Source: Erwinia sp. E_sp_B01_1
Lineage (GTDB): Bacteria > Pseudomonadota > Gammaproteobacteria > Enterobacterales > Enterobacteriaceae
Direction: 5' to 3'
Assembly: GCF_036865545.1 (NCBI RefSeq)
Contig: NZ_CP142208.1
Coordinates: forward strand, 2,418,001 to 2,482,000
Length of the DNA: 64,000 bases
Below the pieces are notes generated by a model that searched no databases, had not been told where the DNA came from, and was given only the letters and a program-made list of their open reading frames with translations. This document shows positions 53,898 to 58,775 of this stretch, one piece after another. The first letter of the stretch is position 1. Each line of letters begins with the position of its first letter. The position numbers were made by a program, and so were the translations under genes.

Positions 53898-54917
53898 ATG
53901 GCGAAAGTGACGGTTTCCGATCTGGCTAAGGAGTGCGGTGTTTCAACAGCAACCGTGTCGATGGTGCTGTCAAACAAGGGTCGAATTTCCGCTCAGACGC
54001 GGCAGAAAGTGATGAGTGCCATTGAGAAGCTGGGCTATGTCTATAACCAGCAGGCCGCCAATTTTCGCAGCCAGACCAGCAATCAGGTTGGACTACTGTT
54101 ACAGGACATCACCAACCCTTTTTACAGCGAACTGATGGCGGGGTTGAGTCACCAGACTGAAGTTAACGCCCTGATGATGTTTATCGCCAATAGCGAAGAA
54201 TCCACCGGGCGACAGCAAAAATTTGTTGAGGCGATGGGCAGAAACAGCGCCTGTGGGCTGGTGTTATGCCTGGCGAGAAACACGCCAGCCGCTTTTATTG
54301 CAGGGCTTAAAAACTTACGCTTCCCGGTGATTCTGGTGGCCCGACCTTCACCGGAGCTGCCCTTTGATTATGTGGGCACAGACAATTTTTCCGGTGCCCG
54401 GCTGGCGACCGATCATCTGCTCAGCCTGGGTCACAGGAATATTGCTTTTATTGGCGGAATGCCCGATTCGGTAACGCGTGAACACCGTATTGCAGGTTAC
54501 ACCAGCCGTCTGAAAGAGGCGGGAATTGCACCCGATGATGACTGGATAATCTCCTGTGAATCTACCAGAGTGGCAGGCGCTGAATCTGTTACGGCACTGC
54601 TGAGCCGTTATCCGCAGATTACCGCGATTGTGTTTCACCAGGATATTATCGCGCTCGGCGCGGTGCAGGGCTTAAGAAGAATGGGCAGGATAATCGGTAA
54701 GGACATTTCTGTTATTGGTTTCGATGATGTCCCGGAAGCCTCGCTGATTGAACCTTCCCTGACCACGATTTCCGTTGAGGCCCGGGAGATAGGCCGAATG
54801 GCGGGAGAACTGCTGCTGAGCAGGCTGGCGGGTAATCAGCAACCCCCTCAAACAATCATTCTCTACCCCACATTAATTAAACGTCATTCATGCGGTCTTT
54901 GCCCGACAGAGTGCTAA
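53898..54917 (+). CDS. LacI-family repressor of the PTS operon
   Basis: 339 residues from ATG 53898 (MAKVTVSDLAKECGVS). AGGA at 53886-53889 fits this start better than the in-frame ATG at 53889 or the frame start at 53874. The HTH is VTVSDLAKECGVSTATVSMVL and the hinge follows near 50-60. The effector domain (about 63-335) has VGLLLQDITNPFYSEL, HLLSLGHRNIAFIGG and ISVIGFDDVPEASL. It is divergent from the PTS operon with two palindromes between, so it should be an autorepressor and the PTS repressor; the effector is probably a phosphosugar. Confidence 0.9.
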   Translation: MAKVTVSDLAKECGVSTATVSMVLSNKGRISAQTRQKVMSAIEKLGYVYNQQAANFRSQTSNQVGLLLQDITNPFYSELMAGLSHQTEVNALMMFIANSEESTGRQQKFVEAMGRNSACGLVLCLARNTPAAFIAGLKNLRFPVILVARPSPELPFDYVGTDNFSGARLATDHLLSLGHRNIAFIGGMPDSVTREHRIAGYTSRLKEAGIAPDDDWIISCESTRVAGAESVTALLSRYPQITAIVFHQDIIALGAVQGLRRMGRIIGKDISVIGFDDVPEASLIEPSLTTISVEAREIGRMAGELLLSRLAGNQQPPQTIILYPTLIKRHSCGLCPTEC

Positions 54918-55113
54918 TAAATAGCCCTCAACCTGTTAATTAACTCCTGTAATAGCTTAATTTAATTTTCACATTATTAATATAATTAAGCTTATAACAA
55001 TTCATATATTTCACAGTGGGAAATCATATGGTTTCAATTGTTTTTTAATATTTTATTCATTACTATTCCCTTTCTGAAGTGATATAACTTCTTTTTGGAC
55101 ATGGAATGTCTTT

Positions 55114-56791
55114 ATGCAAAACTTACCCATACTTACTCGCCTCCCTCTCATTTTCCTGAGTTTAATGCTCTTATTTTCCCGTCCTGTTTTTGCTAATTCT
55201 CAAGCTGTAATCAATCAACAGCAACGACAGAACGCGCTGGATAATCAACTGATGCCTGTTGGTCGCAGTGTTTCTCTCTCCTCATTTAAGGGCGATAAAA
55301 ACCGTATTTCCTTTCCTGAAGAACGGGCATGCTTTTCTGTCAATCAGGTTATTCTGGAGGGGAGCAGCGCATTACCAGGCTGGATCCCCTTACGCAAAAT
55401 AATCCGTCAGGCTGAAGGCCGGTGTCTGGGGGGAAAGGCATTAATTTGCTGATGAAAACGTTGCAAAACAAGCTGGTGGAGGCGGGATATATTACCTCAC
55501 GTATTGTCGCACCGGAGCAGGATCTGAACCGGGGTCAGTTAAAACTTAAGCTGATACTGGGCCGCATCGGGGAGATCAAATTCGCTAAAGAGAGCAGCCA
55601 TTATCTCAATCTGTTTACCGCCTGGCCTGCACACCATGATGACCTGTTAAATCTTCGCGATCTGGAACAGGGGCTGGAAAATCAGTTACGTCTGCCGACG
55701 GTGGAAAGTGAGATGAAGATTATTCCGGGTACTCATCAGGGGATCAGCGATATAGAAATTAACTGGCGGCAGACAAAGAAATGGCGGCTTGATTTGTCGG
55801 TTGATGACGGAGGGTTGATAAGCACCGGACGCTATCAGGGCAGCCTGACGCTTTCCCTGGATAACCCCTTTGCACTCAGCGATTTACTTTATTTCTCCAC
55901 CAGCCGGGAAGTAGAGCAAGGGAATAAGAAAAAAACCGCTATCGTGCAGCGCACTACTCTCTGCCTCTGGGGTACTGGCTGATGGGGATGACGTGTAGCC
56001 AGTACCGTTATCAGCAAAACATCGCAGGCCTGTTCACTGATTACCGATACCGGGGCGAGATGGATACGTTGGATATCTGGCTGAGAAGGACCCTTCATCA
56101 CGATGCCCTGCAGAAAACCACGCTCACCGCCAATGTGTTGGCCAGGCGTTCACGCAATTTTCTTGAAGAGACGGAGCTGGAGATCCAAAGGCGTCAGACA
56201 TCAACCTGGCGTCTGGGATTACAGCATGAACACCGCATTGGCTCAACCTCGCTGCTCCTGGGTGCCAGTTACCAGCGTGGAACCCGCTGGTTTGGCGCAC
56301 GGCCTGCACCTGAAGAGAGGTCAGGACAAGCTACGGCTCTGGGCAAAACAGTGCAGCTGAATGCCCGTCTCAACCAGCCTTTTCAGCTCTCAGGCCAACA
56401 ATTCCGCTATAACGCCAGCTACTTTCGTCAACTCTCTCCCACTCCGCTGACGCCACAGGATCAGCTGGCGATTGGTAATCGCTGGACCGTCCGGGGATTT
56501 GATGGCCAGCGAACGTTAAGTGCCAGCAAAGGGTGGTATGTCCGTAACGACCTTGCCTGGCGCACCCCTGTGTCGCTGCAGGAGCTCTATCTGGGCTTCG
56601 ATTATGGTGAAGTCAGCGGCTACAGCCTGACTTTGCTGGCCGGTAACAGACTTTCCGGCAGTGTTATTGGCCTGCGCGGGAACACACTGAATATTGGCTA
56701 CGATCTGTTTGCCGGTATTCCCCTCTCCAGACCGGAAGGTTTCATTACCAGTAAGGTGACCTACGGTTTTAATGCCAACTGGAGTTTCTAA
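55114..56791 (+). pseudogene. Two-partner secretion transporter TpsB (FhaC/ShlB family), two -1 frameshifts
   Basis: Read as one gene it would encode about 559 residues, the normal TpsB length. A signal peptide (LIFLSLMLLFSRPVFA) is followed by a POTRA region (CFSVNQVILEGSSALPG, then LMKTLQNKLVEAGYITSRIV), then the 16-strand barrel with the conserved VRGFDG motif. The frame is broken at a G6 run (55428-55433; LGGK.. continues as GINLLM after a -1 shift) and at an A7 run (55929-55935; continues as HYSLPLGYW after a -1 shift). Pieces are 55114-55452, 55422-55982 and 55982-56791. Possible causes are decay, programmed or slippage-based shifting, or sequence error. TpsB would export the TpsA protein encoded next. 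Confidence 0.85.
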
Positions 56792-56812
56792 CTCACTAAT
56801 AAGGATATTATT

Positions 56813-58698
56813 GTGAACATTATCTCTGAGCAAAAAATAACGGGTGCTGCAAAAAGCTCCCCTGCAGAAAAAAACGCACGCTTCAGCAACTTTGCCGACT
56901 GAAAACACTCAGCCTGGGAATGTTACTGGCTTTTGGGGCGGTTCAACCTGTCTCTGCTGGTATTGTCGCTGACGGTAGCGCAGCCCGGGCGCTTCAGCCT
57001 TCCGTAAGTGAAAGTACATGGGGTGTTCCTCAGGTCAATATTCAGAAACCCAACGCTGACGGTGTTTCCAGGAATGTGTACAGCGAGTTCGATGTCGATC
57101 GGCGTGGCGTAATCCTGAATAACGCCCGTGATAACACTTACTCCTATCTTGGTGGTGAGATTGCAGGAAACGCTGCGCTTGCCCAGGGGGAAGCCCGCAT
57201 TATCCTGAATGAGGTCAATTCCAGAGATCCAAGCCAGCTGAATGGCATTATAGAAGTGGCCGGTCAGCGGGCGCAGGTAGTGATAGCCAACCCTTCCGGA
57301 ATTACCTGTAACGGATGTGAGTTTATGAATGCCTCACGCGCTACCCTGACAACCGGCCAGGCCATGCTGGAAAATGGCGTCCTGACGGGTTATAAGGTGA
57401 ATGAGGGTACGGTTAAGGTTACCGGAAACGGGTTATATGGTGCCGATGATTACACCGATATTATTGCCCGTTCGGTGAAAATCAATGCAAAAGTCCAGGC
57501 TAACGACCTGAAAATCACCACCGGGCGTAACCAGGTTGACGCCAACAATAGCACCGTGACAAAACTGGCAGACGACGGTAGCGTAAAACCCGAACTGGCC
57601 CTGGACGTGACCCGTCTTGGCAGTATCTATGCCGGTAAAATCCGCATGATTGGTACTGAAAATGGCGTTGGCGTACACAATGCTGGCTACATTAATTCGC
57701 CGGGTGATGTCGTAGTTACCGCAGACGGTAAAATTACCAATGACGGCGCCATAGCCTCTTACACCAATCTGCAGCTTTCAGGACAGGAGATTCATAACCA
57801 CGAGGTGCTGGAAGCCGCAAACATCACGCTCGATAGCGAACGGTTGGTAAACACCTCTGCCATTCTTTCCTACAGCGGTAATATTGATATTAACAGTGGG
57901 TCAGTCGATAACCGTGGGGGCGAAATCTACGGAAATGAAATCCATATTCAGGCTGCCGACATCAGTAATGAATCAGGAAGTATTGCTGCTAACAACGCAG
58001 TGGTCCTGAAAACCACCAGCCTGAAAAACCAGGATGGCCGGATTGAATCAGGAAGCCTGTTGAAATTAGACGTGGCTGACGGAAAAGATCCTCAGGGTAC
58101 AGTGATAGCAGCAGGGGAAATCATTTCGTGGGGCGATGAGGGTCAGAAAGAGGCTGATACTCCCGATCTCACTCCTGAGCCTGATGAAACTCAGCCTGAT
58201 GTTGCTCCGTGGCCTGACATTTCTCCTGAACCTGATGTTGTTCCGGGCCCTGACATTTCCCCTGAACCTGATGAAACTCAGCCTGATGTTGTTCCGGGGC
58301 CTGACGTTTCCCCTGAGCCTGATGAAACTCAGCCTGATGGTGTTCCTCAGCTTGATGAATTCGGTAAAGTTGCCGAAACGGATGAGGGCGTGGCCATTCG
58401 CGACATCACCAAGTTCACAAAGGATTACAACCTTTGGAAAAAAAGTTCAGGGTTCGACGAGAAACTCTGGCAATTACTGCGGGACAGAGGCGTTAAATCC
58501 AACGGCTCATTTGATGATGTTATGTCTTATCTCTGGCTGAATTTTGCCAGCGAGACAGAGATAACCCCTGAGATGATCGGCGGCATCAGTAATATGTTGT
58601 TTGGCGGATTACAGGATAATAAAACGGCCGAGAACATTGAGACGGTGACCCAACTCACCGAATTAATGGGTACCTGCTGGAAAAATGGCTGTAAATAA
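56813..58698 (+). pseudogene. Short hemagglutinin-type TpsA exoprotein, one -1 frameshift near the start
   Basis: A GTG at 56813 with AAGGA upstream begins MNIISEQKITGAAKSSP. At the A7 run 56868-56874 the frame must step back one base to continue KKRTLQQLCRLKTLSLGM into LLAFGAVQPVSAG (long signal peptide) and the open frame that runs from 56920. The TPS domain follows (VPQVNIQKPNADGVSRNVY, VVIANPSGITCNGCEF, ASRATLTTG), then FHA-like beta-helix repeats to about residue 420. A Pro/Asp/Glu repeat (PEPDETQPDVVPGPD units, about 51 bp each) comes next, and a 115-residue C-terminal domain of unknown family ending CWKNGC. About 627 residues in all, short for a TpsA. It needs the adjacent TpsB for secretion. 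No immunity-type gene follows. Confidence 0.8.
58180..58345 (+). repeat. Tandem repeat encoding Pro-Asp-Glu-rich linker in tpsA
   Basis: About three imperfect copies of a roughly 51-bp unit encoding PEPDETQPDVVPGPDVS-like sequence. The middle copies are nearly identical at DNA level, indicating recent expansion and a region likely to vary in copy number between strains. It separates the beta-helix from the C-terminal domain. Confidence 0.75.
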
Positions 58699-58711
58699 GT
58701 CACTTCAGAAT

Positions 58712-58754
58712 GGGCTGACAGAACCAGATTAATGGGTCTCTGTCAGCCCCTTTT
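58712..58754 (+). terminator. Terminator after tpsA
   Basis: An 11-bp stem GGGCTGACAGA (58712-58722) with TCTGTCAGCCC (58739-58749), followed by TTTT. It lies between convergent tpsA and the DppA-like gene. Confidence 0.8.
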
Positions 58755-58775
58755 CGTTAACGTGCACTCACCCTG

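What the first reader, a model, noticed from the sequence alone, without database searches (positions are those of the whole stretch)
55114..56920. Three same-sense frameshifts, all in homopolymers, in both partners of a two-partner secretion locus
tpsB is broken at G6 (55428-55433) and A7 (55929-55935), and tpsA at A7 (56868-56874). Every break needs the same correction, a -1 step or one extra base, to restore full family-length proteins. No other gene in the window is broken. Two of the three sites read, in the zero frame, as X XXY YYZ slippery heptamers (G GGG GGA and A AAA AAC). Options are phase variation by tract length, slippage-based expression, recent decay, or sequence error. A contingency-type on/off control of a secreted adhesin would be a real finding.
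Basis: partly seen in the sequence, partly recalled or inferred. Interest (0 to 1): 0.7.

Follow-up and report, generated by a model that had tools for sequence, protein, structure and literature searches.

The report
False frameshifts from miscounted base runs
Two neighbouring genes of a protein-secretion pair look broken in three places, but the same genome assembly breaks ordinary housekeeping genes in the same way, so the breaks are most likely base-counting errors in the sequence and not a genetic on/off switch.

Summary
Contingency switching and programmed slippage find no support. I compared 1.2 Mb of the window's own genome with 1.2 Mb of same-genus G018. In the own assembly 18 of 574 conserved genes have a -1 class break at a run of five or more, well inside the gene; with G018 as target it is 1 of 588 (Fisher p 2.9e-5). 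Internal stop codons show no excess (7 versus 12), and MutS and MutL are whole. Broken genes include AcnA, AdhE, FeoB, PanF and MlaF. TpsB has a long open frame in 79 of 80 named relatives, and no relative examined carries a tract of 7 or more at the tpsB sites (0 of 92, 0 of 101). Best reading: homopolymer under-calls in the assembly. What remains is an ordinary accessory two-partner secretion locus with a short TpsA and an orphan C-terminus. Three in one locus is more than a uniform error rate predicts, so real decay cannot be excluded without reads.

The parts
55114..55452 (+). tpsB piece 1: leader and start of the POTRA_2 domain; leaves the family frame at the G run 55428-55433
   Evidence: (POTRA_2 positions 1-36, E 7.8e-4, below the curated cut-off for this short piece)
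55422..55982 (+). tpsB piece 2: rest of POTRA_2, POTRA_3, start of the ShlB barrel; leaves the family frame at the A run 55929-55935
   Evidence: (ShlB E 9.6e-18, POTRA_3 5.7e-15, POTRA_2 1.9e-12)
55982..56791 (+). tpsB piece 3: ShlB barrel, ShlB positions 85-311
   Evidence: E 6.5e-65; best named relative 67% identical, Raoultella terrigena L031
55428..55433 (+). G6 run at the first frame change
   Evidence: longest G run here is 2-6 in the 92 relatives examined of 109 loci held
55929..55935 (+). A7 run at the second frame change
   Evidence: longest A run here is 1-6 in the 101 relatives examined of 109 loci held
56813..56902 (+). tpsA leader frame from GTG 56813 with an upstream AAGGAT motif, closed by TGA at 56900; contains the A7 run
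   Evidence: read; no ESPR-type leader as in the 14 relatives printed (the name ESPR is recalled)
56868..56874 (+). A7 run at the third frame change
56920..58698 (+). tpsA ORF: TPS secretion domain, short beta-helix stretch, Pro/Asp-rich repeat linker, 114-aa orphan C-terminus ending in CWKNGCK
   Evidence: TPS E 1e-50; TIGR01901 1.1e-22; 51-bp repeat at 58231-58346; C-terminus in 1 of 392 family genomes, its own
54907..58768 (.). stretch absent from this site in same-genus G018, where lacI and the solute-binding-protein gene matches are 61 bp apart (G018 has TPS-like matches elsewhere)
   Evidence: (G018:C1:2300277-2303184 and 2303246-2304851)

Best explanation
The three frame changes are consensus errors of the genome assembly: runs of identical bases called one base short. 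In the living organism tpsB most likely encodes one whole ShlB/FhaC-type outer-membrane transporter. tpsA most likely encodes a short exoprotein whose TPS domain is exported by it. Shown: the assembly has a one-sided excess of the same lesion class in conserved genes, without an excess of stop codons. Inferred: that these particular three belong to that class, and that the locus is functional.
For: In the own genome 18 of 574 conserved genes have a -1 class junction at a run of 5 or more, at least 45 residues from the ORF start; with G018 as target 1 of 588; Fisher p 2.9e-5; -1 versus +1 class at runs 18 to 2, p 4.0e-4 (a looser count gave 19 and 1). Internal stops 7 versus 12. Broken genes, whole in G018, include AcnA, AdhE, FeoB, BcsG, BcsC, PanF, CsrD, a calcium/sodium antiporter and MlaF (places). 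The same run types fail: G/C6 in 7 of 70 tracts, A/T7 in 2 of 74. Three junctions lie in 2.9 kb at G000:526291-529191 (KdsC, antiporter, MlaF), two of them of this class; the KdsC one is +1 and not at a run. MutS and MutL are whole. The tpsB pieces cover the family domains and carry coding signal throughout. Passages of PMC12007338 and PMC8011154 describe such gene-fragmenting run errors in long-read assemblies.
Against: No reads, and no second genome of this species. At the measured per-tract rates the exact pattern here has p 2.1e-4, and about 0.25 clusters of 3 or more per 3.6 kb are expected genome-wide, so three in one locus is more than a uniform rate gives. None of the 43 window genes with a G018 counterpart is broken. 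Retention of conserved TpsB columns (201 of 251; by my subtraction about 201 of 240 without out-of-frame tails) is below each of 79 relatives in leave-one-out (lowest 0.847, L106; median 0.98). TpsA is short and lacks the extended leader, which fits a reduced locus as well. The sequencing method is unknown, and no gene that I know to be essential was among the breaks at runs.
Confidence: 0.75

Rival explanations
1. Plain recent decay: the accessory locus is a pseudogene in this strain, and some or all of the three run-length changes are real mutations.
For: The locus is absent from this site in G018, TpsA is short, no acyltransferase gene is present, and conserved TpsB columns are kept less well than in 79 relatives. 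Three in one locus is p 2.1e-4 under the measured error rates.
Against: All three lesions are of the class that the assembly shows in conserved genes; I saw no stop codon or larger lesion beside them; coding signal is strong in most of each piece.
Confidence: 0.2
2. Contingency (phase) variation: slippage in the three runs switches both partners on and off in the population.
For: Runs lie inside both genes; phase variation of surface proteins by tract slippage is an established mechanism (recalled).
Against: Runs are only 6-7 bases, and such runs occur through the window; no run of 7 or more at the two tpsB sites in the 92 and 101 relatives examined; three separate switches would have to be on together; the same lesions occur in central-metabolism genes of this assembly.
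Confidence: 0.03
3. Programmed ribosomal slippage at slippery heptamers gives the full-length products.
For: Two of three runs are in the X XXY YYZ phase (read).
Against: Chance phase gives this with p 0.26; no stimulatory fold downstream (z 0.12, 0.96, -0.49); relatives need no slippage in tpsB (79 of 80 open); two events in series within tpsB would leave little product.
Confidence: 0.02

Closest known systems
Type Vb (two-partner) secretion, ShlB/FhaC-type TpsB with TPS-domain TpsA
   Same: POTRA_2, POTRA_3 and ShlB domains, TPS domain PF05860, gene order tpsB-tpsA
   Different: deposited frames broken; TpsA only 592 aa; no extended leader; orphan C-terminus
Class IV CDI loci (cdiB-cdiC-cdiA; PMC8510554, passages seen)
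   Same: the closest named relative of the TpsB barrel, L031, has an HlyC-family gene (PF02794, 6.2e-35) between tpsB and tpsA
   Different: no such gene here, no long CdiA, and only 77 bases between the tpsA stop and the next gene, so no room for an immunity gene
Gene-fragmenting homopolymer errors of long-read assemblies (PMC12007338, PMC8011154; passages seen)
   Same: single-base deficits at runs, genes of all kinds hit, no excess of stop codons
   Different: platform of this assembly unknown

Membership tests
Homopolymer under-call artefact | same lesion class in unrelated conserved genes of the assembly, one direction | tested here: met
   18 of 574 conserved genes against 1 of 588 in control; -1 to +1 class at runs 18 to 2
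Homopolymer under-call artefact | raw reads show longer runs than the consensus | not testable with these tools
   no reads held
Homopolymer under-call artefact | not explained by a mutator | tested here: inconclusive
   MutS 859-aa and MutL 678-aa open frames, no stops; other repair genes not tested
Contingency (phase-variable) locus | hypermutable tract kept in relatives | tested here: not met
   0 of 92 and 0 of 101 relatives with 7 or more at the two tpsB sites; the tpsA site was not compared
Contingency (phase-variable) locus | mixed run lengths within a population | not testable with these tools
   no reads or isolates
Programmed -1 frameshift | slippery site in phase plus stimulatory structure | tested here: not met
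   two of three in phase (chance 0.26); folds at chance level
Two-partner secretion pair | TpsB with two POTRA domains and ShlB barrel; TpsA with N-terminal TPS domain | tested here: met
   pieces searched apart
Class IV CDI locus | HlyC-family gene between the partners | tested here: not met
   only 21 bases between 56791 and 56813

The most novel reading that the evidence does not exclude
The three short runs are real and variable in the population, so that both partners of this secretion pair are under combined contingency control, with product only in the rare cells where all three are in frame.
Probability: 0.03. Interest if true: 0.6.

Novelty: not a real feature. Interest (0 to 1): 0.1.

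Why it matters
It is a caution. At the rate measured here this one-contig genome would hold about 120 false gene breaks (assuming 87% coding), so a 'pseudogene' or 'contingency tract' reading from it needs the assembly-wide control first. If the runs were real, both partners of a secretion system would be under multi-tract control, which I would expect to be unusual.

Tried and rejected
Look for a closer ortholog: among 37 genus genomes, own included, 30 match and the best non-own match is 68% over about 660 bases, so no same-species comparison was possible. E. coli genomes gave no match in 'near' mode. The orphan C-terminus was sought in 392 family genomes (1 match, its own), in PDB sequences (best E 0.26), in NCBIfam (best E 0.027), in plasmids (none at E 0.01) and in loci L002-L110 (best E 0.69).

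Mutator explanation for the many breaks: MutS and MutL are whole. Stop-codon excess as a sign of true decay: none (7 versus 12). A first, unfiltered frame scan mixed in antisense and paralogous matches and was replaced. In one search, 26 junctions remain deep in genes of the own genome (22 of the -1 and 4 of the +1 class) and 7 in G018 (4 and 3). Four of the 22 are not at runs of 5 or more; one of these is the boundary of two formate dehydrogenase subunit genes that are one ORF in G018. Both +1 class junctions at runs are at G6 and measure as two bases short. The recount moved the odds slightly: error 0.77 to 0.75, decay 0.18 to 0.20. L109 (open frame 438 aa) was left out of the conservation count.

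Papers: no paper in the held library has both 'two-partner secretion' and 'programmed frameshift'. 'Two-partner secretion', 'phase variation' and 'homopolymeric tract' together gave 3 papers, and 'Erwinia', 'two-partner secretion' and 'phase variation' gave 7; I saw listings only.

Full report
What is there. The window lies in a one-contig genome of 4,803,726 bases, G000:C1:2418001-2482000. Its genus is Erwinia by inference: matches of the solute-binding-protein gene have nearly the same contig coordinates in same-genus genomes G020, G009 and G015 as in the genomes of named loci L085 (Erwinia rhapontici), L083 (E. endophytica) and L106 (E. phyllosphaerae). The finding is a tpsB-tpsA pair between a lacI-type regulator gene and a solute-binding-protein gene. 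tpsB lies in three frames, and the tpsA leader in another frame than its TPS domain. Pieces searched apart match successive parts of the same domains. A hexamer coding score trained on other genes of this genome, window held out, changes frame at the stated places. Of 103 relatives with a TPS match, 98 run off the held DNA; of the 5 that close inside it, three are short too (500, 376 and 242 aa).

It is the only TPS locus found in this genome by PF03865 and PF05860. In same-genus G018 the two flanking matches are 61 bp apart, so the locus is accessory; G018 has TPS-like matches at another place. The closest named relative of the TpsB barrel, L031, carries an HlyC-family gene between the partners, as in class IV CDI loci (PMC8510554, passages); this one has none.

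The test that decides. If the breaks were special to this locus, other genes of the assembly should be whole. I compared 1.2 Mb of G000 (a quarter of it) with 1.2 Mb of G018 taken from similar positions, using ORFs of each genome to read the other. With G000 as target there are 574 conserved genes (608,144 aligned bp); with G018 as target, 588 (606,094 bp). Counting only junctions at least 45 residues from the ORF start and with both sides aligned, G000 has 26 (22 of the -1 and 4 of the +1 class) and G018 has 7 (4 and 3). At runs of five or more the numbers are 18 and 2 in G000 against 1 and 1 in G018. Genes with a -1 class junction at a run: 18 of 574 against 1 of 588, Fisher p 2.9e-5. Internal stop codons: 7 against 12. 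The broken genes include aconitase AcnA, AdhE, FeoB, BcsG, BcsC, PanF, CsrD, a calcium/sodium antiporter and MlaF, with 79-98% identity on both sides of these breaks. One-sided single-base deficits at runs, in well-kept genes and without extra stop codons, are what homopolymer under-calls look like. I would expect decay to bring stop codons and a mutator to bring both signs (recalled, not tested); MutS and MutL are whole. Passages in print describe such errors in long-read assemblies (PMC12007338; PMC8011154).

Does it cover this locus? The same run types fail elsewhere: G/C6 in 7 of 70 tracts and A/T7 in 2 of 74. At those rates the pattern here has p 2.1e-4, and about 0.25 clusters of three or more per 3.6 kb would be expected over the genome, so the locus is denser than a uniform rate predicts. 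But junctions are uneven: three lie within 2.9 kb at G000:526291-529191 in KdsC, the antiporter and MlaF, although the KdsC one is of the +1 class and not at a run. The 43 window genes with a G018 counterpart have none. I therefore keep real decay of some of the three as the main rival, at 0.2.

Switching and slippage. No relative examined has a run of 7 or more at the two tpsB sites: 0 of 92 for G and 0 of 101 for A, out of 109 loci held, the rest dropped because their match did not cover the site. 79 of 80 named relatives have an open tpsB frame of 560-623 aa; the exception is L109 at 438. The window has 25 runs of G/C 6 or more or A/T 7 or more, 21 of them outside the pair. Two of three runs are in slippery phase, with chance 0.26, and the 67 bases after each run fold no better than shuffles.

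Against my reading. Conserved TpsB columns are kept in 201 of 251 cases, or about 201 of 240 without the out-of-frame tails, lower than each of 79 relatives in leave-one-out (lowest 0.847, L106; median 0.98). The window's TpsB is either simply divergent or under relaxed constraint; the data do not separate these. TpsA lacks the extended leader seen in the 14 relatives printed. No gene that I know to be essential was among the breaks at runs, so the artefact is not proved by lethality. No reads and no second strain were available.

How it would work if whole: TpsB as the outer-membrane transporter recognising the TPS domain of a short TpsA, whose repeat linker and C-terminus with two cysteines would stay at or leave the surface. 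This is inferred from the families and was not tested.

Noticed in passing
G000:C1, e.g. 2513532, 2585126, 2622722, 371445, 473313, 528605, 529191: Single-base deficits at homopolymers break conserved genes in this assembly (18 of 574 examined); other 'broken gene' findings from the same genome should be checked against this.
   Followed up: yes
58354-58698: The 114-aa C-terminus of TpsA, ending in CWKNGCK, has no relative in 392 family genomes, plasmids, PDB or NCBIfam; two cysteines at the extreme C-terminus recall HMW1-type surface anchoring (recalled, not tested).
   Followed up: partly
58194-58346: In-frame Pro/Asp-rich tandem repeat (51-bp unit, 2.3 copies, 93% match) between the beta-helix stretch and the C-terminus of TpsA.
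   Followed up: no
54907-58768: Present here but absent from the same site in G018, where the flanking matches are 61 bp apart.
   Followed up: partly
G000:C1:124289-145722 (L166, L167): Four frame junctions in and near the cellulose synthesis (bcs) genes of the own genome; the G018 copy of the synthase gene is itself split differently.
   Followed up: no
L109 (Mixta tenebrionis): The only named relative of 80 with a short tpsB open frame (438 aa).
   Followed up: no
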